From positions 1,780,959 to 1,844,958 of the forward strand of contig NZ_FXXA01000002.1 of the NCBI RefSeq assembly GCF_900184265.1: a stretch of 64,000 bases of DNA. Reading direction: 5' to 3'. The position numbers and the translations under genes are program-made. The stretch's first letter is position 1, and each line of letters begins with the position of its first letter. The DNA comes from Eggerthella timonensis (lineage in GTDB: Bacteria > Actinomycetota > Coriobacteriia > Coriobacteriales > Eggerthellaceae). Positions 370-54,222 of the stretch are shown one piece after another. Under the pieces are notes generated by a model, which searched no databases, was not told where the DNA came from, and saw only the letters and a list, made by a program, of their open reading frames with translations.

Positions 370-534
370 ATGGCAGGTTTTCATCGAATTCGGAGCTTTG
401 GGCTCCGTCCCAAAGCTCGGCTGCGCGCTCCTTCCCGGAAAAAGACCAGGTGGCGGGAAGACCCATCTCACCGACGGGTTCGCAGACCCCGCCCTTGGCG
501 CACCGAACCTCCGAATTCGGTGAAAACCTGCCAT
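370..534. repeat. Long inverted-repeat element A (165 nt)
   Basis: Arms at 370-394 and 510-534 are complementary at 24 of 25 positions. The element runs from TGGCAGG (371) to CCTGCCA (533). A second hairpin sits directly inside the left arm: GAGCTTTGGG at 393-402 pairs with CCCAAAGCTC at 409-418 around a 6-nt loop. The 430-base stretch 216-645 has no credible gene; it holds this element and the hairpin at 238-263. The architecture matches five other intergenic elements in the window. Confidence 0.75.
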
Positions 535-645
535 TCTCGGAGGCGTCCGCTGCACGGAGGGGCGCACGCGATGGATCCTGCTGGGAGCATGCGTTGCGGA
601 GAGGAGATCGAGCGACGGGAAGCTCGCCGCGCCGCTGGAACGCGC

Positions 646-1227
646 TTACCGAACGCTGCTCTTGATGAGCGAGCGCAGCTCGTCGATGCCGGTGCCCTTC
701 TCCGATGAGCACACGACGAGCGGCACGTCGGCCCCTAGCTTCAGCTGCTTCTTCAGGGCGGCCTTCTGCTTCATCTGCTGCTGCCGGCTGAGCTTGTCGG
801 CTTTCGTCAGCACCACGGCGAACGGCAGCTCGGCTTCCTGCAAAAAGCCGATCATGTTCACGTCGAGGTCGGACGCCTCATGGCGGATGTCTACGAGCGA
901 CACCACGAGCGCAAGGTCGCGATCTTGGTTGAAGTAGCCCTCGATCAGCTCCGACCAGCGGCTCTTGTCCGACTTCGACACCTTCGCGTAGCCGTAGCCC
1001 GGCAGGTCGACGAAGCGCACGCCGTCGCACGAGAAGAAGTTGATGGTGGCCGTCTTGCCCGGCGTCTGCGACACCTTCGCCAGCCCTTTGCGGTTGAACA
1101 GCTTGTTCAGCAGCGACGATTTGCCCACGTTCGAGCGCCCTGCAAACGCGATCTCGGGCATGGTCGAAGGCGTGAGCTGCGACGATACGCCGAACGATCG
1201 CTCGAATGTCACGTTGTTGATGTTCAT
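646..1227 (-). CDS. engB: Ribosome biogenesis GTP-binding protein EngB/YsxC
   Basis: A 193-residue TrmE-Era-EngA-EngB-Septin-like GTPase, usual length for the family, which acts in late assembly of the large ribosomal subunit. Visible GTPase motifs are the P-loop GRSNVGKS (about 30-37), the switch TPGKT, G3 DLPGYG and G4 LTKAD. The ATG at 1227 is chosen over an upstream in-frame ATG because it gives the family N-terminus (MNINNVTF) and has AAGGAG seven bases upstream. It is transcribed away from the zinc-ribbon/kinase pair on the same strand, about 110 bases downstream of it. Confidence 0.95.
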   Translation of the reverse strand: MNINNVTFERSFGVSSQLTPSTMPEIAFAGRSNVGKSSLLNKLFNRKGLAKVSQTPGKTATINFFSCDGVRFVDLPGYGYAKVSKSDKSRWSELIEGYFNQDRDLALVVSLVDIRHEASDLDVNMIGFLQEAELPFAVVLTKADKLSRQQQMKQKAALKKQLKLGADVPLVVCSSEKGTGIDELRSLIKSSVR

Positions 1228-1338
1228 GGGCCGCTCCTTGCCGCTCTTGCATTCACGATGCCCCTCATGGTACCCGAACCCCGTCGGCGATGCGGGCCAG
1301 ACCTGGCAACCCCCTCGCATTCCCCATGGGGCGCTCGC

Positions 1339-2133
1339 TCAGCACCTGAACGCTTCCTCGAAGGCGGGGCCGATGGATGCGAAGTCGGGCAGCGCGGGTT
1401 CGTCCGAGAACAGGTCGAGCAGCAGATCCCGCTGGGCGTGCGCGAGGTCGAGGTCGTCGAACCAGGGAAGCTCGGCGCGCCGTCCGCGACGGCGCGCCAC
1501 GGCAGGGTTCGCGTACAACAGGAACAGCAACACGTCGGCGAGGCCTGCACGGTCGGAGGCGTTCGCCGTAGGGTCCGGCGCGCCTCGCTCGAAGAAATCG
1601 GCCAGCCCGAAATCGACGAGCGACACGGCGCCCTCGTCGTCGATCAGCAGGTTCGCCGGCCGCACGTCGCCGTGCGTCACGCCGCAGCGCTCCAAGTGCG
1701 CGAGCATGTCGACGACCTGACGGCCGACGGAGGCGATCTCAGCATGGTCGAACGGTCTTCGCTGCCGGAACAGCACGCGGTCGAGGGAGGTGCCGGGCAT
1801 GAGGCTTTGCGCCATGAAACAGCGCCCGCGGTCGCGCGGGTCGTCGCGCTCGCACACGATGCCGAGCCAGCGGGGGACGGCGGGGTGCGCGCACAGCGAC
1901 AGCGCCTTCGCCTCTCTCCAGAGGGCGTCGCGGTCGAGGGATCCCCGCTCGGGCTTGATCAGCTTGAGGGCCGCGATGCGGGGCTCGTCGCTGGAGCGCG
2001 AGGCTCGAAAGCACGTGCCGAACCGGCCTTGTCCCAGCACGGCATCGAGATGCCACGCCCCGAACGTGCTGCCGACGAGCCTGCGGTCGCCGGCAGCGGT
2101 GGCGAAGCGCGCTAGCCGCGCGGCGTGCCGCAT
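1339..2133 (-). CDS. Protein kinase-like protein (Bud32/Ser-Thr kinase fold)
   Basis: 264 residues if started at the ATG at 2133. Kinase motifs are in order: glycine loop GQGRFG (34-39), lysine in AALKLI (K57), catalytic loop HGDVRPANLL (154-163, with HGD instead of HRD) and DFG (174-176). The C-lobe is short, and no membrane segment is visible. It overlaps the 3' end of the zinc-ribbon gene by 22 bases and has no clear ribosome-binding site, so translation is probably coupled or the two frames form one product by frameshifting. The frame stays open upstream to 2568, but that extension is antisense-like low-complexity sequence. Substrate unknown. Confidence 0.72.
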   Translation of the reverse strand: MRHAARLARFATAAGDRRLVGSTFGAWHLDAVLGQGRFGTCFRASRSSDEPRIAALKLIKPERGSLDRDALWREAKALSLCAHPAVPRWLGIVCERDDPRDRGRCFMAQSLMPGTSLDRVLFRQRRPFDHAEIASVGRQVVDMLAHLERCGVTHGDVRPANLLIDDEGAVSLVDFGLADFFERGAPDPTANASDRAGLADVLLFLLYANPAVARRRGRRAELPWFDDLDLAHAQRDLLLDLFSDEPALPDFASIGPAFEEAFRC

Positions 2134-4172: not shown

Positions 4173-4277
4173 CAACTTCCGGTTGTCGGGGAGACCGTGA
4201 AAAGCATCCCGTAGTTGGTTGAGGTAACCGCGGTTTCGGTGCATGATGGGGAAGAAGGCGATCGAGAGGAGAGCCCC

Positions 4278-5150
4278 ATGAGCTTCCGAGACAATCTCCA
4301 ACATCTGCGCGCAGCGCGCGATTTGAGCCAGGCGCAGCTTGCGACGCTGCTCGGCGTGAGCCGCCAGTCGGTAGCCAAGTGGGAGGCCGAGAAGAGCTAC
4401 CCCGAGATGGACAAGCTCATCAAGCTGTGCGACCTGTTCGAATGCTCGCTCGACGACCTCGTGCGCGGCGACTTAACCGGCTGCGCGACGGCTGCCGAGG
4501 AGCCGACGGTCGCGCTGAAGGCGTCGACATCCGTGGGTGGCGCGCTCATTATGCCGGGGACCGCCGAAGGGGAGTCCGTGCTCGAAGCGGTGGGCGTCGA
4601 GGGCGAGGCACCCGAGGGCGAAGTCGCTGATGCATGCGGCTACGACGAGCACATGCGCCGCCGCGCATGGGACGTCGCCGCCGGTGTGGCGGTGATCGTC
4701 ATGAGCTTCGGGGTGGCGATGTTCGTGACGGGCGGCGGTTACAACAGCACGACGGTTTTGGCGAACATCGTCGTCCACCTCGTAGGGATCGCGCTCGGCC
4801 TGTGCCTTTTCGTTCCGGCGTATCGCAGCCATGCGGCATTTCGCAAAGAGCACCCGGTGGTCGAGGACTGCTACACGCCGGAGGAGAAGGCGGAAGCGCG
4901 CCGTCGGAAGCTGTTCGGTGTCGGCGGCGGTGTCGCGCTGCTCGTCTTGGGCATGTTCATGCCCGGCATGCTCCAATCGATTCAGATGTTCTCGTTCGTG
5001 CCGTTGGGGCTGTTCGCCTGCTTCGCCGCCGCCATCGCCCTGCTCGTCCACGCCGTTCTCATGGATCGCCGCGTCGACGTGTCCTTCTACAACGGCGCTC
5101 CCGATCTCACGATCCGATCCCTCCTTCGAGGGCGTCGTACTGACGCCTGA
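4278..5150 (+). CDS. XRE-family regulator with C-terminal membrane domain
   Basis: 290 residues. Residues about 1-65 are a helix-turn-helix of the Cro/CI type (LSQAQLATLLGVSRQSVAKW). A linker of about 70 residues follows, then four hydrophobic segments, so the protein should be a membrane-anchored DNA-binding protein. The ATG at 4278 is preceded by GAGAGGAGAG. Its 3' end overlaps the convergent nuclease gene by 44 bases. Members of this layout often control a neighbouring transporter, here possibly the MFS gene upstream; this is inference only. Confidence 0.8.
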   Translation: MSFRDNLQHLRAARDLSQAQLATLLGVSRQSVAKWEAEKSYPEMDKLIKLCDLFECSLDDLVRGDLTGCATAAEEPTVALKASTSVGGALIMPGTAEGESVLEAVGVEGEAPEGEVADACGYDEHMRRRAWDVAAGVAVIVMSFGVAMFVTGGGYNSTTVLANIVVHLVGIALGLCLFVPAYRSHAAFRKEHPVVEDCYTPEEKAEARRRKLFGVGGGVALLVLGMFMPGMLQSIQMFSFVPLGLFACFAAAIALLVHAVLMDRRVDVSFYNGAPDLTIRSLLRGRRTDA

Positions 5151-6150
5151 TCTCGTCGCGCAGCTCGTCTTCGGATGGCAAGCAGGGCAGGCATTCCGGC
5201 ACGAAGATCTGCCGCTCGCCTTCCGGGAGGGTGTACTTTACCACGGCGTCTTTCTTGTTCGCGCACATCACGAGCCCCACGGGCGGGTTGTCGCCCTCGT
5301 TCATGAGCTCGCGCGTGTAATAATGGACGTACATCTGCATCTGTCCGAGATCCTGATGCGTGAGCGTGCCGGTTTTGAGGTCGATAAGCACGAAGCATCG
5401 CGTAACGTAGTTGTAGAACACGAGGTCGATGTAGAAGTGGTCGCCGTCGATCGTGATGCGCTTCTGCCGACCGACAAAGGCGAAGCCGCGACCGAGTTCC
5501 AGCATGAAGTCCTGCAGATGGTCGATAAGCGCTTGCTCAAGGTCGCTCTCGAGCCATGTTTCATCCTGCCTGAGGCCGAGGAATTCCAGCACGTACGGGT
5601 CGCGGATGAGGTCTTCGGGGCGCGTGGGGGCGATTTCGCCTTCTGGCTGGGCGGCGAGCGTGGGCTTGCCGAGAAGGCGCTCGTAGTGAAAGCTTCCGAT
5701 CTGTCGCTTGAGTTGTCGTACGCTCCAGCCCTCTTTGATGCATTCTTCCAGATAGAAAGCACGAGCGTCCTTTTGGGTGACGCGCATGAGTTCGCAATAG
5801 TGGCTCCAGCTCAATTGGCTAGACAGTGTCTGGCCAATTGGAAACGTCAGGTAGAACTGCCGCATGTTCTTGAGGTTTGCAACGGTGAACCCCTTTCCGA
5901 AATCGGCGGTCATGCGTTTCGACAGCTGCTGGATGAGCTTCGTGCCGTACTCTGCGCGTTCCATGCCTTTCTGCTTAGCGACGATGCTCTCGCCGATACG
6001 CCAGTACGCCTGCACCATGGCGAAGTTTGCTGCGGAGTACGCGCGCTTCCGGGCGCTTTCCATGATCTCGTGGATGTGCGTGTAGAACGCGGCGTCGACG
6101 AGCGTGCTTGAGCCATCGGACGTTGCGTTTCGTGAATCGTGCATGTCCAT
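5107..6150 (-). CDS. YhcG/DUF1016-type PDDEXK nuclease
   Basis: 347 residues. The N-terminal half is the DUF1016 helical domain (YWRIGESIV, YGTKLIQQLSKRMTADFGKGF, LSWSHY). The C-terminal half is a PDDEXK nuclease domain with DGDHFYIDLVFYN and VLIDLKTG holding the expected acidic and Lys residues, followed by a Q-rich helix (QMQMYVHYY). The ATG at 6150 has AAAGGA upstream. YhcG-like proteins are DNA-cleaving or recombination-linked enzymes often found near restriction or defence loci; here it stands alone, tail-to-tail and overlapping with an XRE regulator gene. Function in this host is unknown. Confidence 0.87.
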   Translation of the reverse strand: MDMHDSRNATSDGSSTLVDAAFYTHIHEIMESARKRAYSAANFAMVQAYWRIGESIVAKQKGMERAEYGTKLIQQLSKRMTADFGKGFTVANLKNMRQFYLTFPIGQTLSSQLSWSHYCELMRVTQKDARAFYLEECIKEGWSVRQLKRQIGSFHYERLLGKPTLAAQPEGEIAPTRPEDLIRDPYVLEFLGLRQDETWLESDLEQALIDHLQDFMLELGRGFAFVGRQKRITIDGDHFYIDLVFYNYVTRCFVLIDLKTGTLTHQDLGQMQMYVHYYTRELMNEGDNPPVGLVMCANKKDAVVKYTLPEGERQIFVPECLPCLPSEDELRDEIRRQYDALEGGIGS

Positions 6151-6362
6151 GATCGTCCTTTCGTTCGGTGTCGGTAACGTAAGCCGGGGCGACGAACGAG
6201 AGGAGCCGTCCGGAGCGCCGCCTTCCCATGCAAGCCTGCGGCATCTCCGATACGCTGGGTAGAGTGTACCGCGATTCGGCGAGAGCGAATCTGTTACATG
6301 CATAGTGCATGCAACAAACATGCTTTGTTCTAAAACGCCTGATCTCGTCGCGCAGCCGAATG

Positions 6363-6515
6363 TGGGCGCGAATCGGCAGCTGTGACAATGTGGACGGTGT
6401 TTGCGGACGGCGACAGACGAAAGTGATTCGTCCCACCTGGGGTTTCTCGTTCTTCAGAGGCAGTGTTGCCCGCTCAAAGGGTCGCCGGATTGTCATGGGT
6501 ACCGATTCGCGCCCA
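6363..6515. repeat. Long inverted-repeat element B (153 nt)
   Basis: Arms at 6363-6376 and 6502-6515 are complementary at 14 of 14 positions; the pairing continues inward to about 6391/6487 through a shared TGACAAT block (23 of 29 overall). The element starts TGGGCG and ends CGCCCA. An internal hairpin pairs GACGAA (6416-6421) with TTCGTC (6427-6432). It lies in the 583-base gap 6151-6733 between the nuclease gene and rpsB, which otherwise holds a small CATGCA/TGCATG palindrome near 6297-6312 and the rpsB promoter. Confidence 0.65.
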
Positions 6516-6590
6516 TATTCGGGCGCACTCGCGCGTCGTCGTCGGCAAATTCGCCGCAACCGCGCGCGAACGGCCTTTTGCGCTTTTCGC

Positions 6591-8523: not shown

Positions 8524-8547
8524 GCTTCGCTCGCATACCGCGCACCC

Positions 8548-19881: not shown

Positions 19882-20021
19882 TGGACAAAAAGCCGACTTT
19901 TCTTTATCTTGAATAAAGAATAATCGCGCGAGCGAAGTCCTCACCTGCGGTTATGAAAACCCGAAATTCCCGCGTCTCGGATTCCCGCTCGAAATCTAGA
20001 GAAAACTGCCCTTTTTGTCCA
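19882..20021. repeat. Long inverted-repeat element C (140 nt)
   Basis: Left arm 19882-19903 and right arm 20000-20021 pair at about 18 of 22 positions; the ends are TGGACAAAAAG and CTTTTTGTCCA. An internal hairpin, TTCTTTAT with ATAAAGAA (about 19900-19921), sits just inside the left arm. The 521-base gap 19676-20196 contains this element and the terminator at 19712; no further gene is visible there. Confidence 0.65.
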
Positions 20022-22642: not shown

Positions 22643-22697
22643 GCAAAGGCTTGTCTTCGCCTTGGTCGGAAACCAAGGCCTGTAAAGGAGAACCATA

Positions 22698-42138: not shown

Positions 42139-42162
42139 TTCCTCCATGTGACAGTGAAGAAG

Positions 42163-42328
42163 GGCCGATCTGCGGCAAAATCGGGTTTTTGGCAGTGCGG
42201 AAACGCGTTTCTCGCGGAGGCGGTGAGGCGACCAGGCATTTTGCCGACGGCTTGATGGTCGGGTGCTTTCTCTCGGCGTTCAAAACGGGAAAACGCTGCC
42301 AAAAATCCGATTTTGCCGCAGATCGTCC
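42163..42328. repeat. Long inverted-repeat element D (166 nt)
   Basis: Arms 42163-42195 and 42296-42328 pair at 31 of 33 positions (28 of 29 over 42167-42195/42296-42324). A perfect internal palindrome GAAACGCGTTTC lies just inside the left arm (about 42200-42211). Unlike the other elements, its ends are GGGCCG and TCGTCCC rather than TGG and CCA; TGGCAG and CTGCCA occur at the inner end of the arms instead. Confidence 0.75.
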
Positions 42329-42410
42329 CCTGAAAAGCGCGCGAAAGAGAACCTGGGTCGCGCGGCGAGCCGCTCAGTTCCGCGGCGCGCCGCTTGCTGG
42401 GTCGTCGACG

Positions 42411-43140: not shown

Positions 43141-43347
43141 ATGCGCCTCGCGCACTATGACGTTGTCGATGCCATTATCGCGGCGCGCGCCGAAGAGAAC
43201 CTCACCCAGCGTGAGCTGGCGCAGCGGTGCGGCATGAAGCAAAGCGCGTTCGCGCGCCTGGAATCCGGCAACGCCAACCCCACGATCGAAACGCTTCAGC
43301 GCGTGGCCGAAGGCCTCGGCAAGAAGCTCAGGATCAGCTTCGTCTAG
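43141..43347 (+). CDS. Small XRE-family DNA-binding protein
   Basis: 68 residues, a single helix-turn-helix domain (LTQRELAQRCGMKQSAFARLE, NPTIETLQRVAEGLGKKL) like HigA/HipB-type antitoxins. No toxin gene is adjacent on either side, so it is either a lone regulator or a remnant. The ATG at 43141 has only a weak ribosome-binding site. Confidence 0.68.
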   Translation: MRLAHYDVVDAIIAARAEENLTQRELAQRCGMKQSAFARLESGNANPTIETLQRVAEGLGKKLRISFV

Positions 43348-43606
43348 CGCGGCTCCTCGGGCGCGGATCGCCTTGTGCGGCTTTCCGACGGCCTCGTCGC
43401 GTGCGGCGCTCTTGTTTTTCGCCAGCTTGGCAATTTTTCGCCCTCCCCGCGAGAAATCGTGTATGCTAACACCTGCTGCGCCCGGACGGCGCGGCGAACG
43501 CGCGCCTGCAAGCGCGCCCATCCCCGCACACGTTAATAAATAGGTGGGGCAACCGTGTGAATGAAAGGCTGCGGGAGGCGGCCGGAACAGGACAGGAGGG
43601 AACCGC

Positions 43607-46138
43607 GTGAAGCTGGTGGTAACCGAGAAGAACGACGCGGCTCAGAAGATCGCCGATTTGCTCGGCGTCAAGAAACCCAAGGCGGACAAGGTGTACTCGA
43701 CGCCGGTGTACCGTTTCGACGTCGACGGGGAGGAATGGGTGACCATCGGCCTGCGCGGCCACATCCTCGAGCCCGACTTCGCGCCGACGATGGTGTACAA
43801 GAAGCGCGGCGGATGGCAGGGCGTCACCGAGGAGGGCGAGACGCTCCCGGCCGAGCTGCCCGCGACGCTGCCGAAGCCCCCGTTCAAAAAGAAGAAGCCC
43901 TTCACCGAGGACGGCGTGGAGCTTAAGTCCTGGAAGATGGACGCGCTGCCGTACCTCGTGTACGCCCCCATCAACAAGCTGCCGAAGGAGAAGGAGATCA
44001 TTCGCTCGCTGAAGAACCTCGCGAAGAAGGCCGACTCGGTCATCATCGCGACCGACTTCGACCGCGAGGGCGAGCTCATCGGAAGCGACGCGCTCAGCTG
44101 CATCCAGGAAGTGAATCCCACGGCCCCCGTGTCGCGCGCCCGCTACTCGGCGTTCACGAAAGAGGAGATCACTCACGCGTTCGACAACCTCGTCGAGCTC
44201 GACACGAACCTCGCCTCCGCCGGCGCCTCGCGCCAGGACATCGACCTCATCTGGGGCGCGGTGCTCACGCGCTACCTGACGCTCGTGAAGTTCGCCGGCT
44301 ACGGCAACGTGCGCTCGTCGGGCCGCGTGCAGACGCCCACGCTCGCCCTCATCGTGGCGCGCGAGCGCGAGCGCCTCGCGTTCATCCCGGAAGACTACTG
44401 GGTGATCCGCGGCGCGTTCGGCACCGATCCCGACGCTTTCGAAGCCCCGCACGCCACGGCCCGCTTCAAGGCCGAGGCCGAGGCGAACGCGGTCATGGCG
44501 CACGTGGAGGGCGTGACGAGCGCGACCGTGTCGTCGGTGGAGAAGAAGAAGCGCACGGTGCAGCCGCCCGCGCCGTTCAACACCACGTCGCTCATGGCGG
44601 CGGCATCGGCCGAGGGCCTGAGCCCCGCGCGCACCATGCGCATCGCCGAGAGCCTGTACATGGACGGCTACATCTCCTACCCCCGTGTGGACAACACCGT
44701 GTACCCGAGCTCGCTCGATCTCGCCGACACGGTGAAGGCCATCTCCGGCAACCCCGCCTACGCGCCGTACTGCAAGGAGCTGCTGGCGAAGGGCAAGCTC
44801 ACGGCCACGCGCGGCAAGAAGGAGACGACGGACCACCCGCCCATCTACCCGACGGCCAAGGCCACGCCCGACGACCTGGCGCCCGCCGACTACAAGCTGT
44901 ACAACCTCATCGCGCGCCGCTTCCTGGCGACGCTGTCCGAGGCGGCCGTCATCGAGGGCACGAAGGTTACCCTCGACGTGAACGCCGAGCCGTTCGTGGC
45001 GAAGGGCGACGTGCTGGTGAAGCAGGGCTACCGCGCCATCTACCCCTACGGCCTCAAGAAGGACGAGCAGCTGCCCGCGCTGTCCGAAGGCGATACGATC
45101 GCGTTCGGCGGCGCCACCTGCACGAAGAAGCAGACCGAGCCGCCCGCGCGCTACAGCCAGGGCAAGCTCATCCAGGAGATGGAAAAGCTGGGCCTCGGCA
45201 CGAAGTCCACGCGCCACTCCATCATCGAGCGCCTCTACGCGGTGAAGTACTGCATGAACGACCCCATCGAGCCCAGCCAGCTGGGCATGGCCGTGTGCGA
45301 CGCCCTCGACAAGTTCGCGCCGCACATCACGCACCCCGAGATGACGGCCGAGCTCGAGGAGGAGATGGACAACATCGCCGAGGGCCGCACGACGAAAACG
45401 CAGGTGGTGGACACGAGCCGCAACCTCCTGTCCGAGCAGCTGGCAAGCCTGCTGCCGCATTCCGAGGAGGTCAAGGAAGCCCTGGCCGACGCCGTGGCCG
45501 CCGACGCCTACGTGGGGCCGTGCCCGAAGTGCGGCAAGGATCTGCAGCTGCGCGCGTCGCAGAAGACCCGCAGCATGTTCATCGGCTGCTCCGGCTGGCC
45601 CGACTGCGACGTGACCTATCCGCTGCCGAAGGGCAAGGTGGAGGCCGTTCCCGAGCCGTGCCCCACCTGCGGCATGCCGCAGGTGAAGGTGACCGCGTTC
45701 CGATCCAAGCCGCGCACCATCTGCATCGACCCGCATTGCGCCACGAACCAGGAGCCCGACGTGGTGGTGGGCGAGTGCCCGGCCTGCAAGGAGAAGGGCA
45801 TCCAGGCGAAGCTGATCGCGCAGAAGAACCCGCGCACGCTCAAGCGCTTCATCCGCTGCGAGAACTACGACGACTGCGGCACGGGCTACCCGCTGCCCCA
45901 GTACGGCGCGCTCACGGCCACCGAGGAGGTGTGCGAGCATTGCGGCGCGCCCATGGTGATCGTCACCACCGCGCGCGGCCCGTGGAAGCTGTGCCCCAAC
46001 TTCGACTGCCCCGGCAAGGAGCAGAAGGAGGACGCGAAGGACGCCAAGGGCGCGAAGGGGGCCGTCGCGAAGAAGCCGGCGGCGAAGAAGGCGCCTGCCA
46101 AGAAAGCCCCGGCGAAGAAGGCTGCGGCGAAGAAGTAG
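43607..46138 (+). CDS. topA: DNA topoisomerase I, archaeal-type TopA
   Basis: 843 residues from a GTG start with ACAGGAGGG upstream. TOPRIM residues are in VVTEKNDAA and ATDFDREGELIG; the catalytic Tyr is Tyr358 in YISYPRVDNTVYP. The body resembles archaeal/eukaryal-type type IA enzymes more than E. coli TopA. The C-terminal part has five zinc-ribbon-like Cys clusters (CPKC, CPTC, CPAC, CEHC and related), then a Lys/Ala-Pro tail of about 40 residues like histone H1. It relaxes negative supercoils. Confidence 0.93.
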   Translation: MKLVVTEKNDAAQKIADLLGVKKPKADKVYSTPVYRFDVDGEEWVTIGLRGHILEPDFAPTMVYKKRGGWQGVTEEGETLPAELPATLPKPPFKKKKPFTEDGVELKSWKMDALPYLVYAPINKLPKEKEIIRSLKNLAKKADSVIIATDFDREGELIGSDALSCIQEVNPTAPVSRARYSAFTKEEITHAFDNLVELDTNLASAGASRQDIDLIWGAVLTRYLTLVKFAGYGNVRSSGRVQTPTLALIVARERERLAFIPEDYWVIRGAFGTDPDAFEAPHATARFKAEAEANAVMAHVEGVTSATVSSVEKKKRTVQPPAPFNTTSLMAAASAEGLSPARTMRIAESLYMDGYISYPRVDNTVYPSSLDLADTVKAISGNPAYAPYCKELLAKGKLTATRGKKETTDHPPIYPTAKATPDDLAPADYKLYNLIARRFLATLSEAAVIEGTKVTLDVNAEPFVAKGDVLVKQGYRAIYPYGLKKDEQLPALSEGDTIAFGGATCTKKQTEPPARYSQGKLIQEMEKLGLGTKSTRHSIIERLYAVKYCMNDPIEPSQLGMAVCDALDKFAPHITHPEMTAELEEEMDNIAEGRTTKTQVVDTSRNLLSEQLASLLPHSEEVKEALADAVAADAYVGPCPKCGKDLQLRASQKTRSMFIGCSGWPDCDVTYPLPKGKVEAVPEPCPTCGMPQVKVTAFRSKPRTICIDPHCATNQEPDVVVGECPACKEKGIQAKLIAQKNPRTLKRFIRCENYDDCGTGYPLPQYGALTATEEVCEHCGAPMVIVTTARGPWKLCPNFDCPGKEQKEDAKDAKGAKGAVAKKPAAKKAPAKKAPAKKAAAKK

Positions 46139-46270
46139 CGAACCGTCTTGGATGCGGTGAACTGGTTGACGATGCCGGCAGGGAAAGACCCGCCGGCATC
46201 GTTCGTTTTCGCGCGGGGGATCGGCGGGCGGGAGGTCGGCAGACCGGAGTGCTCTCGAGCGTTTGCGGGG

Positions 46271-46486
46271 CTAATGCTCGAGAGGCATGAGCAGCTGGTA
46301 CGCCTCTATGCCGAGCGGCTCGGCGATCTTTTGCAGGTTCAACGTGGACACGTTGATGCGGCGCTGCTCGATGCCCCCGATATAGGTGCGGTGAAGGCCC
46401 GTCTTGTTCGCAAGCTGTTCTTGCGAGAGACCGGCCTTCTTTCGGTAGTGCCGTAGATTGGTCGAAAGCGTCAGCAGGATATCCAT
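46271..46486 (-). CDS. Small XRE-family regulator (controller-like)
   Basis: 71 residues with an HTH (LSQEQLANKTGLHRTYIGGIE), close in layout to restriction-modification controller proteins and small phage repressors. The ATG at 46486 is preceded by GAAGG. It is divergent from the surface-protein gene at 46659 and may control it; no methylase or nuclease gene is near. Confidence 0.72.
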   Translation of the reverse strand: MDILLTLSTNLRHYRKKAGLSQEQLANKTGLHRTYIGGIEQRRINVSTLNLQKIAEPLGIEAYQLLMPLEH

Positions 46487-46577
46487 TAACCTTCATCTCA
46501 GATAGCGGCGGATGCCCGTAGTTCCTGACGACAAGTTTCAAATAACTCATAATATAAATCGACAGAATATATATAGC

Positions 46578-46605
46578 TTTACATTGCCGAAGATGCCGTT
46601 ATAAT
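46578..46605 (+). promoter_or_regulatory. Promoter of the BspA-like surface protein gene
   Basis: TTTACA (46578-46583), 16 bases, TATAAT (46600-46605). The 170-base region between the divergent genes is unusually AT-rich for this genome, with several ATATAT runs that could bind the neighbouring regulator. Confidence 0.72.
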
Positions 46606-46658
46606 CAGCATAATGACTATGATATATAGCATTTTGCAGAGAGAGGCGTGAAGAACAT

Positions 46659-49600
46659 ATGCGGCATGGCAACCAAATTCGCAACTCCGGAAGAGCCGTC
46701 TGCGCTTTCGCATGCGCATGCTTGCTTGCGCTGGGCGCGTCCGTCGGGGCCGTAGCTGAGGCGTCCTGCGCGTTCGCGGCCGAGGGCGTCGAGACGGCTT
46801 CAAGCGGGGATGAGCCTGCGGTCGTGCCGTCCTCTCAAGCGGCCGCGAGCGTGCCGCTCTCCCAAGACCCCAAGCCCGCCGTCGGCGAGATGCGCGCCGA
46901 CGGCCTCGTGTTCCGCGTGCAGCCCGACGGCGCGTCCGCCGCGCTCGTCGGCTGGTACGGCGAGGCGCTCCCCGCCGACGTCGTGATCCCCGCGCGCGTG
47001 TCGAGCGGCGGCGACCCCTACGAGGTGCGGGCGATCGGCCTAGCCGACGACGAGGGGCGCTGCGGGCCCCTGCTTAAAGGCTCCGAGATCGAGTCGCTCT
47101 CGATCCCCGCGACCGTCTCCGAGATCGCCGACGGCGCTCTCGCCGGCTGCGATTCCCTGTCCCGCATCGCCGTCTCTCACGAGAACGAAGCCTACTCCTC
47201 CTTCGACGGCATGCTGTTCTCGAAGGACCTCTCAAGCCTCCTGCTCGTTCCCGAGGGCAAGGAGGGCGCTGCCCGCATCCCCGACCAGACGGCGACTGTC
47301 CCTGCCTCGGCATTTTCCCGGTGCCAGAGGCTCCAAGCCGTCCAGGCCGGGGAGGGCTGCGCCGCGTGCTCCTCGCGGAACGGTATCCTGTATTCCAAGG
47401 ACATGAAGGCGCTCGTCGCGTGCCCGCCCGGCGCGGGCGGGGCCGTCGTCGTCCCGGAGGGCGTCGAGTCCGTCGCCCCCGGCGCGTTCGCGGGCTGCTC
47501 CGTGGACTCGATCGCGGTTCTCGGCGAAGTGAATTCCATCGCCCCCGACGCGTTCGACGAGGCCGCGAAGTCGGCCGTCGTCGCGCTGCCGGAAGGCTCC
47601 GACCGCGGGGTCTGGGAGGCCGCGGGCTTCTCGCGGTTCGCCGAGCCGGCGAGCCCCGGCGACACGGCCGAGCCCGAACCTGCCGGCCCCGACGCGCCAG
47701 AAGGCGAGGATCCCGGCTCCCCGCGGGCCGGGCTCTCCTTCGAGGTGCTTGGCGACTACACGCTGGCCGCCTCCTGGGCCGGAGGCGAGGCCCCCGCGAC
47801 GATCGAGGTCCCCGCCGCCGCCGAGGTCGGGGGCGCGTCCTACCGCGTGAGCGCCGTCGCCCCCGCGGGCTTCTCGAACCTGGCGACCCTCGAGTCCGTC
47901 GTCCTCCCGGCGGGCCTCTCGACGATCGGCGACGCCGCCTTCGCGGGCTGCTCGAGCCTCTCCTCCGTCAACGTCCCCGACGGCGTCTCCTCGATCGGCG
48001 AGCGCGCCTTCGAGGCGACGGCGCTGACGGAGGCGTGGCTCCCTGAAAGCGTCGAGGCGGTGGGCCCGCGCGCGTTCGCGTCGTGCGCCTCCTTGGCCCG
48101 CGTGGTCGCGCTCGGGACCCCCGACGTCGCCGCGGACGCCCTCGCCGAGTGCTCGGGCGTCTCGGTCTACTGCCCGTCGGGCTCCGAGGGCGCCTGGAAC
48201 CCCGGCCTTCCCGCCGCGGGCAACCGCGTGCTCCCGTACGCCGCGACGCTCTCTGCCGAGCCGCTGGCCCTGGCCGCCGGCGAGACCGCCGACCTGCTGG
48301 AGGGAGGCGGGCTGCTCGCCCCCGAGCCCGTGGAGGCGTCCTACTCCTACCCGGCCAAGCCGCTTTCCGTCGACGCCGACGGCTCGGTCGCCGGCAAGTC
48401 CGAGGGCGCGGCCGACGTGGCCGTGTCGCTCTCCCTCGACGGCGTCGAGCTCGCCCGCGCCTCGCGCCCGGTCGAGGTCGCCCCCGGCGAGGCCGGCGCC
48501 GTTCCCGAGCCCGCGGTCGTCAGCGAGGACCGCCCGCTCCTTCCGTCCGCCTACCTCGCCGGCGAGCGCGCCGCGGCGGCCCCCATCAGCGTCACCGCGC
48601 CGGTCGCCGTCACCTTCGGCGACGGCAACGGCTACGACGTGGCGAACCCCGCCGACAGCGTGACGTCGAGCGCCAGCTTCAAGAACAACGGCGACTATCA
48701 GGTTCGGCTCGCGAGCGTGTCTTGCGCCGACGCAGGCGCCGGATCGGTTCTCGACGCGAAACAAGGCGCACCGGCCCTGGAGTCCCAAGACCTGTTCTCC
48801 ATCGCGCCAACATCTGATCCCTCAAAGTCGGTGTCGTTCGGCCTGACCGACACTGGCGTCGTCCCTACCGATAAAGCGGCTTTCGCCGCCGATCCCGGAA
48901 GCACGCTCGTGTGCTCCTTCGGCTTGGACCTTGCAAATGCCCAGATCGAAAGCTCGGCCGCCGACCATGGCATGACCGTGAAGCCGCTGGCGACGGTGAC
49001 TTGCACGTTCGAGCTTGTTCCCGGGCAGGGCAAGGAGAGCGACTCCTTCTACCTCAAGGACGTCGACAAGGACCTGACGTACAGCCTCGTCGAGGTGAAA
49101 TCGCATGCTGAGGACATCTCCGCGAAAGGCGAAAGCTCCGAGTGGTACCGTCAATACGAGGGCTACATCGCCGACGAATCCGCATACGAATGCTGGACGA
49201 CGTGGGACGGCACCCCCTACGAGGTGCGCGTCATCGGCATCAACCACGACGTAAAGTCGGACGGAACCGGAAAGGCCGGCCTCACGTTCCAGTTCAAGAA
49301 TCTTCTGAACGATGAGCACAGCATGAAGCCCGTAAACATCAGCGCTGGCGGCTGGGGCTCTAGCGATCTTCGAAAGAGCATGAACGAGGGCGTCATTTGG
49401 AAATCGGTTCCAAGCGACCTGAGTGAGGCGATCGAGGCCGTGCAAAAGGGGTACGGGATCGAGAGAAATCAGACGTCTCCCGATGTCGAATATTCTCCCG
49501 ACAAACTTTTCGTCGCCAGCTACTTCGAGCTCACGGGGACAGTTCAGGGCCGTTGGCTTTCGAAAGAATGGCTGTCTCGCGAAGGTTCGCAATACGAATA

Positions 49601-49811
49601 CTGGAAGGGAAAGGTCGAGAACGGACTTGGCGAAAACCCCAGACTCGTCAAGGGGTTCCAGAATACGCCGGGCGTCCCGAACCTCTGGTGGGAGCGTTCG
49701 ATATACCCTGACACGGACACCCATTTCTTCCGCGTCATAACGGACGGCAATCCTAGCAACAATGGAAGCGCAAGCGCTCCCGGCGGCGTGTGCCCCTGCT
49801 TCTGCCTCTGA
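46659..49811 (+). CDS. Exported BspA-like leucine-rich-repeat surface protein
   Basis: 1050 residues. A Sec signal ends near CAFAAE (about residue 41). Two blocks of LRR_5/BspA-type repeats follow (about 130-330 and 370-520; units such as VPDGVSSIGERAFEAT and LATLESVVLPAGLSTIGDAAF). The middle is a Gly/Ala-rich beta region (about 520-800); the last 250 residues resemble a DUF6273-type domain (SAGGWGSSDLRKSMNEG). There is no LPXTG anchor; the chain ends in PCFCL. Such proteins bind host or bacterial surfaces. Base composition shifts: the first two thirds are very GC-rich, the C-terminal third much less so. Confidence 0.82.
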   Translation: MRHGNQIRNSGRAVCAFACACLLALGASVGAVAEASCAFAAEGVETASSGDEPAVVPSSQAAASVPLSQDPKPAVGEMRADGLVFRVQPDGASAALVGWYGEALPADVVIPARVSSGGDPYEVRAIGLADDEGRCGPLLKGSEIESLSIPATVSEIADGALAGCDSLSRIAVSHENEAYSSFDGMLFSKDLSSLLLVPEGKEGAARIPDQTATVPASAFSRCQRLQAVQAGEGCAACSSRNGILYSKDMKALVACPPGAGGAVVVPEGVESVAPGAFAGCSVDSIAVLGEVNSIAPDAFDEAAKSAVVALPEGSDRGVWEAAGFSRFAEPASPGDTAEPEPAGPDAPEGEDPGSPRAGLSFEVLGDYTLAASWAGGEAPATIEVPAAAEVGGASYRVSAVAPAGFSNLATLESVVLPAGLSTIGDAAFAGCSSLSSVNVPDGVSSIGERAFEATALTEAWLPESVEAVGPRAFASCASLARVVALGTPDVAADALAECSGVSVYCPSGSEGAWNPGLPAAGNRVLPYAATLSAEPLALAAGETADLLEGGGLLAPEPVEASYSYPAKPLSVDADGSVAGKSEGAADVAVSLSLDGVELARASRPVEVAPGEAGAVPEPAVVSEDRPLLPSAYLAGERAAAAPISVTAPVAVTFGDGNGYDVANPADSVTSSASFKNNGDYQVRLASVSCADAGAGSVLDAKQGAPALESQDLFSIAPTSDPSKSVSFGLTDTGVVPTDKAAFAADPGSTLVCSFGLDLANAQIESSAADHGMTVKPLATVTCTFELVPGQGKESDSFYLKDVDKDLTYSLVEVKSHAEDISAKGESSEWYRQYEGYIADESAYECWTTWDGTPYEVRVIGINHDVKSDGTGKAGLTFQFKNLLNDEHSMKPVNISAGGWGSSDLRKSMNEGVIWKSVPSDLSEAIEAVQKGYGIERNQTSPDVEYSPDKLFVASYFELTGTVQGRWLSKEWLSREGSQYEYWKGKVENGLGENPRLVKGFQNTPGVPNLWWERSIYPDTDTHFFRVITDGNPSNNGSASAPGGVCPCFCL

Positions 49812-49838
49812 TCGGCGATGGAAAGGAAGGCGGAAAGC

Positions 49839-50678
49839 ATGCAACGCAACAGAGCAGGGATCAGGCTTCGCTGGGTCGGGCATGCGGCGGCGGTCTGCGT
49901 CCTGGCGGCCTCGCTCGCGCTGTCGGGCACGGCCTTCGCAGGCTCCATGCAGCTCGGTCTGCGCGTGTGGGACTCTTCGCAGGGCCAGGGCTCGGAAGAT
50001 GGAGGCCAGCCGGGAGCGACGCTGCTCGGCATTCGGGTGACGGACTCGTCGAGCTCGGCTCCGCTGACCGTGCGGGTATCGTTCGACCCCTGCAACGGTT
50101 CGGCTGTGTCGATGCGGGAGGTTCCTTACAACTCGCCTGCGTCCGAGCCCGGCATCCCGGTACGCGACGGGTATTCTTTCCTCGGCTGGTTCGATGCTCC
50201 CTCAGGCGGGTTGCTCTACGATTTCTCTTCGCCGGCGACATCCGACGTCGTGCTCTACGCCCAGTGGGCGCTGAGGGTGTCCTGCGACGTGCCCGCAACC
50301 GCCGTCGTCGCGATCGACGCTTCGGGGGACGCAACGGGCCAGGTTCTGCCCTTCGTGTCTGGATCCGTGGCTCCCATCGAGGTGAGCGCCGTCAAGAGCG
50401 CAAGGCTCGCAGGAGCGGAGTCCGTCTTCTCCGACCCGGCAACCCTCGTCGGCGTCCGCATGACCCTCGAGCCGCCCGCCTCCGCGGGCTCGGCCGTGCA
50501 GGTCCCGCTCGAGACCTCGGCGGACGGCCAGCCCGCGGGTTTCGTCGTCCCCGCCAAGGGCACCCTCGCGGTGTCGTTCGGTCTGTCGCTCCCGGCGAAT
50601 GCGAAGCTCTCTTTCGTCGAATCCTCCGCTGAGATCTGCCGGCTCAGCTACGTGATCGGCGCGGCGCCGTCGAGTTGA
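49839..50678 (+). CDS. Exported InlB B-repeat protein
   Basis: 279 residues from the ATG at 49839 (GGCGGAAAG upstream; an ATG at 49818 is possible). A Sec signal ends near AFAG. Residues about 80-145 form one Listeria-Bacteroides InlB B repeat (DGYSFLGWFDAPSGG, LYAQW). The C-terminal part is a beta-rich domain of unknown type. It follows the BspA-like gene after 27 bases and is likely co-expressed with it. Confidence 0.78.
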   Translation: MQRNRAGIRLRWVGHAAAVCVLAASLALSGTAFAGSMQLGLRVWDSSQGQGSEDGGQPGATLLGIRVTDSSSSAPLTVRVSFDPCNGSAVSMREVPYNSPASEPGIPVRDGYSFLGWFDAPSGGLLYDFSSPATSDVVLYAQWALRVSCDVPATAVVAIDASGDATGQVLPFVSGSVAPIEVSAVKSARLAGAESVFSDPATLVGVRMTLEPPASAGSAVQVPLETSADGQPAGFVVPAKGTLAVSFGLSLPANAKLSFVESSAEICRLSYVIGAAPSS

Positions 50679-50720
50679 CGGGCCGGGCGATTCCTTCCCG
50701 CGTGCGGAAGCCTTTCGTGT

Positions 50721-50840
50721 TGGCAGAGATCGAACGATATGAACGATTTTCCGGCATGTTTTTCGTCTTCGGTCGGGAAAGCACCAGGTCGCTAAAAGTT
50801 AGCTTTGGCTATTATCGTTCATAACGTTCGATCTCTGCCA
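50721..50840. repeat. Long inverted-repeat element E (120 nt)
   Basis: Arms 50721-50747 and 50814-50840 pair at 26 of 27 positions; ends are TGGCAGAGATCG and CGATCTCTGCCA. A small hairpin GCTAA-AAG-TTAGC (50791-50803) lies close to the right arm. The 338-base gap 50679-51016 also holds a possible mdh -10 box TACAAT at 50973-50978. Confidence 0.75.
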
Positions 50841-51016
50841 CGGAGGCTGCAAGGCCTCAAGTTGTACGTCTTGCGGCCCCCCGTATGGGTGCCTAAGGGC
50901 GTCGGCTCGCGCGCGACGTGCCGTTTCGCTGGAGATACGCGGCTCGCCTTCGCGCTTGGCCGCCCCAAGCGCTACAATGCAGGGCGCAGAACCTGACATC
51001 GAAGGAGAGCTATCAC

Positions 51017-51940
51017 ATGCCCAAGGTAACCATCGTCGGCGCCGGCAACGTCGGTGCCACCGCCGCCCACATCATCGCATCCAAGAACCTGGCCGACGTC
51101 GTGCTCATCGACGTGGCCGAGGGCCTGCCCCAGGGCAAGGCGCTCGACATGATGCACATGCGCAGCGTCGAGCAGTTCACGGTCAAGGTGACCGGCACCA
51201 ACGACTATGCCGATACGCGCGACTCCGACGTGGTGGTCATCACCGCCGGCATCGCCCGCAAGCCCGGCATGACCCGCGAGGACCTGCTCGGCGTGAACGC
51301 CGGCATCATGAAGTCGGTGATCGGCCAGGCCATGGAGGCGTCCCCGAACGCCGTGTTCATCTGCGTGACGAACCCGCTCGACGTCATGACCACGCTGGCG
51401 TTCCGCGAGTCGGGCCTGCCGGCGAACCGCCTCATGGGCATGGGCGGCGTGCTGGACTCCTCGCGCCTCGCGTTCGCGGTGTGCGAGCAGCTGGGCTGCC
51501 CGCCGGCGTCGGTGACGGCTTGGGCCGTGGGCGCGCACGGCGAGGGCATGGTGTGCTGGCCGCGCTTCACCACGGTCGACGGCACCCCCATCACCGAGCT
51601 CATGGACGAGTCGGCGGTGGCCAGCGTGGTGCAGCGCTGCGTGAAGGGCGGCGCCGAAGTGGTGGCCTTCCTCAAGACCGGCAGCGCCTACTACGCTCCC
51701 GGCGCATCCATCGCGAAGATGGTGGAAGCCATCCTCACCGACTCGCACGAGGTCATGAGCGTGTGCGCGCACATCGACGGCCAGTACGGCATCGACGACC
51801 TCTACATGAACGTGCCGGTGCGCCTCGGCAAGAACGGCGTCGAGGAGGTCGTGGAGTTCGACCTGAACGACGACGAGCTGGCAGCCCTGCGCGCCAGCGC
51901 CGACAGCGTCCGCGCCGGGCTGGCTAACCTGCCGGAGTAA
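51017..51940 (+). CDS. mdh: Malate dehydrogenase (LDH-like type)
   Basis: 307 residues. NAD-binding IVGAGNVGA, NPLDVMT, and the catalytic His in AVGAHGEGM are visible; the substrate-binding Arg loop is IARKPGMTRED. LDH-like malate dehydrogenases interconvert malate and oxaloacetate. The ATG at 51017 has AAGGAGAG upstream. Together with the fumarase genes at 54364 it would feed a reductive malate-fumarate branch. Confidence 0.93.
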   Translation: MPKVTIVGAGNVGATAAHIIASKNLADVVLIDVAEGLPQGKALDMMHMRSVEQFTVKVTGTNDYADTRDSDVVVITAGIARKPGMTREDLLGVNAGIMKSVIGQAMEASPNAVFICVTNPLDVMTTLAFRESGLPANRLMGMGGVLDSSRLAFAVCEQLGCPPASVTAWAVGAHGEGMVCWPRFTTVDGTPITELMDESAVASVVQRCVKGGAEVVAFLKTGSAYYAPGASIAKMVEAILTDSHEVMSVCAHIDGQYGIDDLYMNVPVRLGKNGVEEVVEFDLNDDELAALRASADSVRAGLANLPE

Positions 51941-51991
51941 GCGCGGCGGAGCGAGGGCGGGCCCCTGCGCCCGCCTGCATCGAAATCAATG

Positions 51992-52048
51992 CATCTTCGC
52001 TCCGAAAACACGCCACAGCCGCTGTGGCGTGTTTTCGGAGCGAAGATG
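51992..52048. repeat. 28-bp perfect stem hairpin in the nitroreductase leader
   Basis: 51992-52019 and 52021-52048 are perfectly complementary with a single base between them. The right arm ends only 9 bases before the AAGGGAGG ribosome-binding site of the downstream gene, so besides ending mdh transcription it could control the next gene's translation or processing. Confidence 0.85.
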
Positions 52049-52065
52049 TTTCAAGGGAGGCATCC

Positions 52066-52860
52066 ATGCTGATCGAAATCGAAGAAGAACGCTGCATCGG
52101 GTGCGGACGGTGCGTCGCCGACTGCGTGGGAACGAACTTGCTGGTGGAGAACGGGATCGCGCGCGTGAAAGGCCGCTGTATCCTGTGCGGGCACTGCGTG
52201 GCCATCTGCCTGACGGCTGCCGTGTCGATCCCGAGCTTGGACATGGCTGACGTGGAGCCCGCCGCGCCCGCAAGCGAGACGCTCGACGCGGTCGCGCTGC
52301 TGCGCGCCATCAAGTCGCGCCGCAGCGTGCGCGACTACCGCCCGCGTCCGGTGGGGCGCGACGAGCTCGAGCTCGTGCTGCAAGCGGGCCGCTACACCGC
52401 GACGGCCAAGAACGCCCAAGGATGCCGCTTCGTCGTAGTGCAGGACGCGCTCGACGAGTTCAAGGGCCTCGTGTGGGACGGCATCGACGATCTGCTCGCC
52501 CTGCCGCCCTCCGACAAGCCGCGTTGGGCGAAGCTGTACAAGCCGTTCAGCCGCGGACGGTTCGCCGACGAGCCCGTCGACTTCCTCTTCCGCAACGCGC
52601 CCGCGGTCGTGTTCGTGGCCGCCGAGCGCGCCGACGACGCGGGGCTGGCCGCGCAGAACATGGAGCTCGTGGCCTCCTCGCTCGGCCTCGGCGTGCTGTA
52701 CAACGGCTACCTATGCCGCGCGGCCGAAGAGCTTCCCGCAGCGAAGGCATTTCTCGAAGCGGAGGACAAGCCGCTGCAGGTGTGCATGCTGCTGGGGTAC
52801 CCGGCCGTGTCGTTTCCGCGCACGGCGCCGCGCCTGCCGGGCGACTTCGTGGTGAAGTAG
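52066..52860 (+). CDS. Ferredoxin-nitroreductase fusion
   Basis: 264 residues. Residues 1-60 are a 2[4Fe-4S] ferredoxin (CIGCGRCVADC and CILCGHCVAIC). The rest is an FMN-dependent nitroreductase fold (IKSRRSVRDYRPRPV, YTATAKNAQG, ELVASSLGLGVLYNGYL). The fusion would deliver electrons from the ferredoxin to FMN for reduction of nitro or enone-type substrates. The ATG at 52066 has AAGGGAGG upstream; one base separates its stop from the next gene. Confidence 0.93.
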   Translation: MLIEIEEERCIGCGRCVADCVGTNLLVENGIARVKGRCILCGHCVAICLTAAVSIPSLDMADVEPAAPASETLDAVALLRAIKSRRSVRDYRPRPVGRDELELVLQAGRYTATAKNAQGCRFVVVQDALDEFKGLVWDGIDDLLALPPSDKPRWAKLYKPFSRGRFADEPVDFLFRNAPAVVFVAAERADDAGLAAQNMELVASSLGLGVLYNGYLCRAAEELPAAKAFLEAEDKPLQVCMLLGYPAVSFPRTAPRLPGDFVVK

Positions 52861-52861
52861 C

Positions 52862-54040
52862 ATGCTGAGCGTAGGCGTCGACCAGGTACGACGGTTCCGA
52901 TTGCGCGCGCATCACCTCGATCGCTCCTACGACGTGCGGGACGCCCTCGCGCTGGCGGGGGCGTGCGGGATGCAGAACACCCCGCCGGGCGCATGGGAGG
53001 CGGCCCTGTTCAACCGCGCGCCAACCTTCCGCGGGAAGGACGCCGAGCGCTTGCTGTACGGCGAGAAGTCGCTCGTGCAGGCCTGGAGCTTGCGCGGCGC
53101 CCCCGTCGTGTTCCCGGCGGCGGAGAGCGACGCGTTCCTCTCGGCCCTCGTGCCGCGCGACGGCGAGCCGTGGATATACACGAACGGCATCCGTCTCGCC
53201 CTCGATGCGCTGGGCATAGGGTTCGCCGAGGCGCTGGACCTGGTGAGGCGCGCGACGGCGCTGCTCGACGAGCGGTCCGTCGCGAGCAAGGCGGCCCTCG
53301 ACCAGGTGCTGGCGGATGCGGTGGAGCCCCTGCTGCCTGAGGGTAAGCGCGCGGCGTGGCGGGAGCCGTCGATGTACGGCAGCCCCGACAGGCAGACGGT
53401 GGGCGGGGCGGCGGTGTCGTTCTTGCTGCGCCCCTGTTCCTTTCTCGGCCTCGTCGTGTTCGGCGAGCGCGACGGCGTCGCGCCCACGTTCACCTCGTAC
53501 CGGCGTTGGCTGGGGCACGCGCTGGAGCCCGCCGACGACGCGGCGGAGCGCCTCGTGCGGAAGTTCGTGCACTGCTACGGCCCGACGAGGCCCGACGCGC
53601 TCGCGAAGCAGCTCGGCTGCTCGGGCGCGCAGGCGCGGCGCCTGTGGAAGCTTGTCGCGGACGAACTGGAGCCGGTGGGGTTCGGGGACGGGCGGGCGTG
53701 GGCGCTGGCCGCTGACCGCGATGCGCTCGCGTCTTCCGGGTGGCCGGAGCGCCGCCTGCTGCTGCTGGCTGCCCACGATCCGTACCTCGACCAGCGCGAC
53801 CGCGCGACCCTGCAAGCCGATCGAGCCTTGCAGCGCCGCATCTGGCGGACGGTGGCGAATCCCGGCGTCGTCGTGCGCGATGGCGAGGCGGTGGGGGTCT
53901 GGACGAGCAAGAAGCAAGCGCGTGGCCTGACGATCTCGTGCGAGGTGTGGAGCCCCTGCGACGAGGCTCGGCTGCGCGCGCTCGCCGAGGAGTACGCCGC
54001 CTTCCGGGGGCAGCCGTTGCTGAGCGTGAGCTTCGGATAG
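52862..54040 (+). CDS. AlkZ-like winged-helix DNA glycosylase family protein
   Basis: 392 residues of the HTH_42/AlkZ family, whose members unhook DNA interstrand crosslinks or protect antibiotic producers from their own genotoxin. Family landmarks are LLYGEKSLVQAW, the winged-helix middle, and HDPYLDQRDRATL with VANPGVVVRDGEAVGVWTSKK near the C-terminus. The catalytic QxQ-type motif is not certain. It starts one base after the nitroreductase stop and is co-transcribed with it. Confidence 0.85.
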   Translation: MLSVGVDQVRRFRLRAHHLDRSYDVRDALALAGACGMQNTPPGAWEAALFNRAPTFRGKDAERLLYGEKSLVQAWSLRGAPVVFPAAESDAFLSALVPRDGEPWIYTNGIRLALDALGIGFAEALDLVRRATALLDERSVASKAALDQVLADAVEPLLPEGKRAAWREPSMYGSPDRQTVGGAAVSFLLRPCSFLGLVVFGERDGVAPTFTSYRRWLGHALEPADDAAERLVRKFVHCYGPTRPDALAKQLGCSGAQARRLWKLVADELEPVGFGDGRAWALAADRDALASSGWPERRLLLLAAHDPYLDQRDRATLQADRALQRRIWRTVANPGVVVRDGEAVGVWTSKKQARGLTISCEVWSPCDEARLRALAEEYAAFRGQPLLSVSFG

Positions 54041-54080
54041 GACGCGCCCCCTCCTGGATGCGGGCGTGCCGGCGAGATTC

Positions 54081-54222
54081 TGGCAAGTTCGTGCCGTTAT
54101 GCGAGGGTTTTGCTCGCTGGAGAAGGGTCGTGTCGATGAGCGCCGTAAGAATTGCCTGGTCACGAGTCGGCACGCTAACTCTTTCCTCCATTGAGGAAAG
54201 CCAAAACAACGCGAACTTGCCA
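54081..54222. repeat. Long inverted-repeat element F (142 nt)
   Basis: Left arm 54081-54098 (TGGCAAGTTCG...) and right arm 54205-54222 (...CGAACTTGCCA) pair at 15 of 18 positions plus a G-T. A perfect internal hairpin CTTTCCTC-CATT-GAGGAAAG is at 54181-54200. The 323-base gap 54041-54363 holds this element and the fumarase -10 box TATAAT at 54350-54355. Confidence 0.68.

What the first reader, a model, noticed from the sequence alone, without database searches (positions are those of the whole stretch)
370..54222. Six intergenic elements with unrelated but self-complementary long arms and shared TGG...CCA ends
Seen: at 370-534, 6363-6515, 19882-20021, 42163-42328, 50721-50840 and 54081-54222 there are inverted repeats with arms of about 18-33 nt at 75-96% complementarity, separated by about 65-125 nt, with a smaller hairpin or palindrome inside. 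Five of the six begin TGG and end CCA exactly where complementarity stops. The arms do not share sequence beyond that, so pairing is kept while sequence drifts. This points to selection on folded RNA or single-stranded DNA, or to a mobile element that recognises structure. All lie between genes, usually at operon borders.
Basis: seen in the sequence. Interest (0 to 1): 0.78.

Follow-up and report, generated by a model that had tools for sequence, protein, structure and literature searches.

The report
Nuclease-linked mobile palindromes in gut bacteria
The six long palindromes are copies of scattered DNA repeats whose families mostly sit beside their own private gene for a predicted Vsr-like DNA-cutting enzyme, which likely spreads them; this enzyme-repeat pairing was not found in the papers we searched.

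Summary
The six inverted repeats are real. Each belongs to a multicopy family in its own genome (3 to 15 places per family), so arms are shared within a family and differ between families. Many families share a central core, about AAACCCCAGGTCG. The main result lies outside the window: such elements sit next to genes for a roughly 310-residue protein with a predicted Vsr/I-Bth0305I-like nuclease domain. In the own genome, three genus-mates and one relative, 33 of 40 such genes have an element within 350 bp, against 45 of 291 control ORFs. In 80 loci from Coriobacteriia and a few other MAGs, long inverted repeats crowd into the first 300 bp beside the gene (63, then 9, 6, 1, 2, 0, 1, 1 per 300-bp bin). 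Arms co-diverge with the protein, and the 5' and 3' elements of one gene share arms (17 of 19). The genes are single and often syntenic between species while elements are dispersed. This resembles REPIN/RAYT logic with an unrelated enzyme. e2-e5 match arms beside a nuclease gene; e1 and e6 do not. Arm mismatches show no RNA-wobble bias. Mobilisation by the nuclease is inferred, not shown.

The parts
370..534 (+). e1: palindromic element, family E1 (ATGGCAAGTTTTCACCGAATTCGGA arms); core-like AAAGACCAGGTGG at 441-453
   Evidence: (2 further places in own genome); no cognate gene above the null
6356..6522 (-). e2: palindromic element, family E2 (TGGGCGCAAAACGGCACCCATGACAAT arms); core AAACCCCAGGTGG at 6433-6445
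   Evidence: arms match elements beside nuclease genes L242 (G001) and L234 (G003)
19882..20021 (-). e3: palindromic element, family E3 (TGGACAAAAACGCGAGTTTTC arms); core-like TAACCGCAGGTGA at 19941-19953
   Evidence: arms match the element beside nuclease gene L222 in G002; a family copy too imperfect for the counting rule (arm score 12.5) lies about 330 bp from own-genome nuclease gene L214; orthologue in G003 keeps the arms but lacks the interior
42162..42329 (.). e4: palindromic element, family E4 (ATGTGCGGCAAAATCGGGTTTTTGGCAGC arms); core orientation ambiguous (AAATGCCTGGTCG on the - strand at 42229-42241)
   Evidence: 14 places in own genome; orthologue present in G001 and G003; arms match the element beside own-genome nuclease gene L216
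50721..50840 (+). e5: palindromic element, family E5 (TGGCAGAGATCGCACGATATGAACGA arms); core AAGCACCAGGTCG at 50779-50791
   Evidence: 15 places in own genome; compensating arm changes; arms match the elements flanking own-genome nuclease gene L209
54081..54222. e6: palindromic element, family E6 (TGGCAAGTTCGAGCCGATATG arms); core weak (8 of 13)
   Evidence: 7 places in own genome; orthologous gap in G001 holds an E4-like element instead; no cognate gene above the null

Best explanation
The six palindromes are dispersed repeats of several arm families, and four of the six match arms found beside a particular gene for a predicted Vsr-like nuclease that likely binds the arms and spreads the repeats in trans, much as RAYT transposases are thought to spread REPINs. 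Shown by the calls: families with several to many copies; a shared core in many genomes of the family; linkage of elements to the nuclease genes across the class; arms matching between the two sides of one gene and co-diverging with the protein; single genes, syntenic where close, beside dispersed elements; paired changes in the arms; no RNA-wobble bias. Predicted: the C-terminal part (about 172-286) has the fold of the I-Bth0305I/Vsr catalytic domain, with invariant E175, D220, E231, H237 and D246; the N-terminal half resembles the AbiEi antitoxin, a protein that binds inverted repeats. Inferred and untested: the N-terminal half binds the arms, the nuclease cuts in or beside the element, and repair or replication then copies the hairpin into a new intergenic site. 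The element directly 5' of the gene could also serve as its operator.
Confidence: 0.6

Rival explanations
1. The elements are operators: the AbiEi-like half of the protein binds the arms to repress its own gene and perhaps a set of other genes, and the dispersed copies form a regulon.
Against: 39 of the 109 elements are 3' of the gene; copies of a family align over most of 120-165 bp including the interior, not only arm half-sites; presence and absence between related species, and different families in one orthologous gap, look like insertion; AbiEi repeats are 3 bp apart and those within Rv2827c pairs 13 bp (PMC7319586), here about 60-120 bp.
Confidence: 0.2
2. The elements are MITEs of an unrelated transposase that tend to land near these nuclease genes, and the genes have no part in it.
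For: No direct proof of mobilisation by the nuclease; the TGG...CCA ends of several families look like transposon ends; some arm hits without a partner in the held stretches were not followed up.
Against: Most genes have their own arm family, the two sides match, and arms co-diverge with the protein; close orthologues are syntenic and keep elements; no long relative with the same ends was evident in the stretches held.
Confidence: 0.1
3. The element is made as a structured RNA that controls or guides the nuclease (an RNA antitoxin or a guide).
For: Gene beside a long foldable sequence with a conserved central stretch.
Against: G.T and A.C mismatches in the arms are about equal on the core strand (28 to 27; 43 to 39) and on the gene strand (75 to 74), while an RNA helix should tolerate G.U; core orientation relative to the gene is mixed (36 of 59 opposite); no Rfam family reached its gathering score over the six elements.
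Confidence: 0.06
4. The pair is a defence or self-marking system: the nuclease attacks foreign DNA and its own palindromes act as decoys or marks.
For: Weak PADLOC matches of the nuclease domain in 2 of 4 proteins (mREase_II, E 0.0003 and 0.0006); AbiEi-like half.
Against: Close orthologues are syntenic, unlike many defence genes (the comparison is recalled); the defence library gives only partial nuclease-domain matches.
Confidence: 0.04

Closest known systems
REPIN / RAYT (TnpA_REP) systems
   Same: Dispersed intergenic hairpin repeats in several families per genome, families found near their own single-copy, largely vertically kept enzyme gene; compensating changes in the hairpin (PMC3116915, abstract and passages read)
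   Different: The enzyme is a predicted Vsr-like nuclease, not a Y1/HUH transposase; elements are mostly about 120-200 bp with family-specific arms of about 25-35 bp and often a central core; G001-G003 carry elements but no Y1_Tnp match
I-Bth0305I (EDxHD, Vsr-like) homing endonuclease
   Same: Catalytic-domain fold and a weak sequence-profile match
   Different: An AbiEi-like N-terminal half; linked to dispersed palindromes; whether an intron surrounds any of the genes was not examined
AbiEi / Rv2827c type IV antitoxins
   Same: N-terminal model resemblance; both are tied to inverted repeats beside the gene (PMC7319586)
   Different: Carries a nuclease domain; the inverted repeats are far apart and also dispersed over the genome
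MITEs / ERIC-like intergenic palindromes (ERIC recalled)
   Same: Size, palindromic form, intergenic location, several to many copies
   Different: Class-wide linkage to a nuclease gene and co-diverging arms; no target duplication evident

Membership tests
REPIN / RAYT | Cognate Y1 (HUH) transposase gene beside the repeats | tested here: not met
   PF01797 gives one match in G000 and none in G001-G003, which carry the elements; the linked gene is DUF559/Vsr-like
REPIN / RAYT | Single-copy enzyme gene, vertically kept, with dispersed hairpin repeats of its own family | tested here: met
   synteny shown for 15 of 16 close pairs, not for distant ones
MITE | Terminal inverted repeats and several to many non-coding copies | tested here: met
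MITE | Target-site duplication | tested here: inconclusive
   None evident by eye in 64 copies listed with 16-nt flanks; no clean empty site
MITE | Autonomous relative with the same ends around a transposase | tested here: inconclusive
   Not evident in the stretches held, which are only part of the genome; unpaired arm hits there were not followed up
Vsr / EDxHD nucleases (I-Bth0305I) | Catalytic-domain fold and conserved acidic/His residues | tested here: met
AbiE type IV toxin-antitoxin | AbiEi-fold antitoxin half | tested here: inconclusive
AbiE type IV toxin-antitoxin | AbiEii (DUF1814) toxin gene next door | not tested
   Neighbouring genes were not scanned for it
Structured RNA family (Rfam) | Match to a curated family | tested here: not met
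   Only the L31-Coriobacteria leader at 22659-22690 reached its gathering score in the window; a permissive search of 42100-54300 listed four weak matches, none on e4-e6

The most novel reading that the evidence does not exclude
A class-wide mobile-repeat system in Coriobacteriia in which a diversifying set of AbiEi-Vsr fusion nucleases each recognises and copies its own private palindrome: a REPIN-like world run by a homing-endonuclease-type enzyme instead of a transposase, with dozens to probably hundreds of copies per genome.
Probability: 0.55. Interest if true: 0.92.

Novelty: categorically new. Interest (0 to 1): 0.83.

Why it matters
DUF559/Vsr-like proteins are, to my knowledge, common and mostly unexplained; this gives one large branch a concrete, testable partner. 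If the nuclease spreads the palindromes, DNA repeats can be dispersed by a nuclease that is not a known transposase. Many genomes carry ten or more such genes, most of those checked with an element beside them, which would be a natural set of enzyme-site pairs for reading the specificity code. It would also explain where many long intergenic hairpins of Eggerthellaceae come from.

Tried and rejected
Folded RNA: the mismatch test shows no wobble bias. RAYT-driven: PF01797 has no match in three of four genus genomes. Insertion into loops of existing hairpins: complementarity continues beyond the family ends in 6 of 64 copies (score 6 or more), against 1.47 expected by permutation (maximum 6 in 2,000), but the one orthologous site that could be read shows no such hairpin, in diverged DNA; left open. 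Clean empty sites and target duplications: not found. Autonomous long version of an element: not evident in the stretches held, where some unpaired arm hits were not followed up. TGG...CCA as a universal end: only a weak tendency. The tool advises not to read absences from the fold search; none is claimed.

Rows dropped and limits: one search left out 4 of 53 inverted repeats that looked coding or accidental. The 40 genes are all matches in G000-G003 (two adjoining matches joined; one is a remnant with stops) and 1 of 12 in G006. The 64 copies include a few orthologous or near-duplicate pairs. Alignment A5 holds 16 copies of the E5 family (12 from G000, 4 from G001); partial, longer or later-found copies were left out. 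Control stretches were partly chosen because they hold elements, which raises the control rate. The 80 loci are those kept by the tool out of 100 relatives, and one (L306) repeats a locus seen earlier (L206). The core motif was first read from some of the elements that it was then counted in; searches are the more independent test. The 77% cut was set after seeing the list. One search scored at most 19 candidates per genome, so its counts may be low. Place counts per family were made by me from the listings.

Papers. Passages read: PMC7319586 and PMC3116915. PMC10969869 was searched for six terms, with no hits. All others were seen as listings with the start of the abstract only. The statement that the pairing was not found described rests, in open-access full texts only; one search listed all 14 papers that name DUF559, and by title and start of abstract none deals with dispersed palindromes beside such a gene. 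ERIC, parS and the EDxHD label of I-Bth0305I are recalled, the last also seen as a search term hit.

Full report
Observation. All six inverted repeats are in the sequence. e1, e2, e4 and e5 stand out from Markov versions of the window. e3 and e6 have short or imperfect outer arms and rest on their relatives. e4 runs 42162-42329, and e2 extends to 6356-6522.

Families. Whole-genome nucleotide searches place the window at 1,780,959-1,844,958 of contig 2 of a 3.9-Mb genome and show that every element has relatives: E5 in 15 places, E4 in 14, E3 in 13, E6 in 7, E2 in 4 and E1 in 3 of the own genome (places counted from the listings, the window copy included). Within a family the arms are conserved. 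Further families with other arms appear in 20-kb stretches. So the arms are unrelated between families, not within them.

Shared centre. Among 96 inverted repeats, a nine-base core CCCCAGGTC matches fully in 13 and at 8 of 9 in 23, against 0.1% and 1.9% of 5,000 random windows (the motif came from part of these). A pattern search for AAACCCCAGGTSG over whole genomes gave 345 matches in 74 of 119 genomes of the family, against 7 for the reversed control. In 15 of 30 such loci the core lies inside a strong inverted repeat, at or near its middle, usually with other arms in another genus; 3 loci have a weak repeat and 12 none. The core is not universal: in the loci a match of 9 or more of 13 is found in 35.7% of elements, chance 18%.

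The nuclease. A 310-residue ORF lies between two E5 elements. It just reaches the Pfam DUF559 cut-off (20.7 against 20.6 bits). Relatives number 14 in G000, 13 in G001, 11 in G003 and 2 in G002 and occur in 93 of 119 family genomes. Of 40 genes fetched with flanks, 33 have an element within 350 bp, 8 on both sides; among control ORFs it is 45 of 291, 3 on both sides. In 80 loci from the public genome collection (Gordonibacter, Paraeggerthella, Raoultibacter, Rubneribacter, Slackia, Adlercreutzia, Olsenella and many Coriobacteriia MAGs), 58 have an inverted repeat within 350 bp, and repeats scoring 17 or more number 63 in the first 300 bp beside the gene, then 9, 6, 1, 2, 0, 1 and 1 per further 300 bp (the last bin is open-ended within the flank held).

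Private pairing. The 5' and 3' elements of one gene share arms in 17 of 19 loci. Arm similarity follows protein similarity (rho 0.208, 0 of 500 permutations). The genes have no close paralogue in their own genome (best 71%) and are syntenic between species in 15 of 16 pairs at 77% identity or more, but in only 1 of 30 pairs at 60-73%, while elements are dispersed. Nuclease and core counts correlate over 119 genomes (rho 0.53), with exceptions both ways. Of the six window elements, e2, e3, e4 and e5 match arms beside a nuclease gene above all 60 shuffles of their arms; e1 and e6 do not. For e4 and e5 the gene is in the own genome. For e3 the matched gene is in G002, and a less perfect family copy lies about 330 bp from own-genome gene L214. 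For e2 the matched genes are in G001 and G003 only.

DNA or RNA. Paired arm changes are real. G.T and A.C mismatches are about equal on the core strand and on the gene strand, so there is no sign that an RNA helix is what is kept. Two DNA causes remain: selection for symmetric binding by the nuclease, or template-directed correction within hairpins; the data do not separate them.

Mobility. e4 is shared by three species; e2 is missing at the orthologous site in G003 and G001, and e6 in G003; the orthologous gap of e6 in G001 holds an E4-like element instead; e3 in G003 keeps both arms but has lost the interior. An E6 copy at another locus is absent in G003. No insertion was seen at base precision.

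Verdict. The link between element families and Vsr-like nuclease genes is firm. That the nuclease disperses the elements is the best reading (0.6). Operator function is the main rival and may be true as well.

Noticed in passing
window 29273-29322: Two copies of TGTTTCACGTGAAACA, which look like parS partition sites (name recalled); they may mark the origin region.
   Followed up: no
window 37718-37797: A perfect 39-bp palindrome (GGGATGAGACAGAGGGACGGGG...) with a relative at L144:14993-15098: another repeat family.
   Followed up: partly
window 51992-52048: A perfect 28-bp palindrome with a one-base loop about 50 bp after the lactate/malate dehydrogenase ORF, perhaps a terminator.
   Followed up: no
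window 22659-22690: L31-Coriobacteria ribosomal leader, Rfam RF03128.
   Followed up: no
window 5107-6321: The ORF of a YhcG/DUF1016 PD-(D/E)XK nuclease begins 34 bp from e2; whether it is related to the linked nuclease was not tested.
   Followed up: no
L128:1099-1869: A lone Y1_Tnp (RAYT-like) gene in the own genome with repeated CCCTTTGGGACT at its flank: probably a separate repeat system.
   Followed up: partly
L124:15290-15445: In G001 the intergenic gap orthologous to that of e6 holds an E4-like element instead.
   Followed up: partly
L119:2076-2135: The e3 orthologue in G003 keeps both arms unchanged and lacks the interior.
   Followed up: partly
L101, L103, L107, L131 (E3 copies): Several E3 copies carry an extra conserved block like ATGATGCTTTCAATCA just outside one end only.
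   Followed up: no
L142:5947-6288, L122:524-913, L132:13524-14011: Elements of different families sit side by side, about 20-220 bp apart.
   Followed up: no
L269, L270, L320, L325: Relatives of the nuclease in MAGs labelled Clostridiales or Spirochaetes; L270, L320 and L325 have an inverted repeat beside the gene and L269 does not; they may be mislabelled bins.
   Followed up: no
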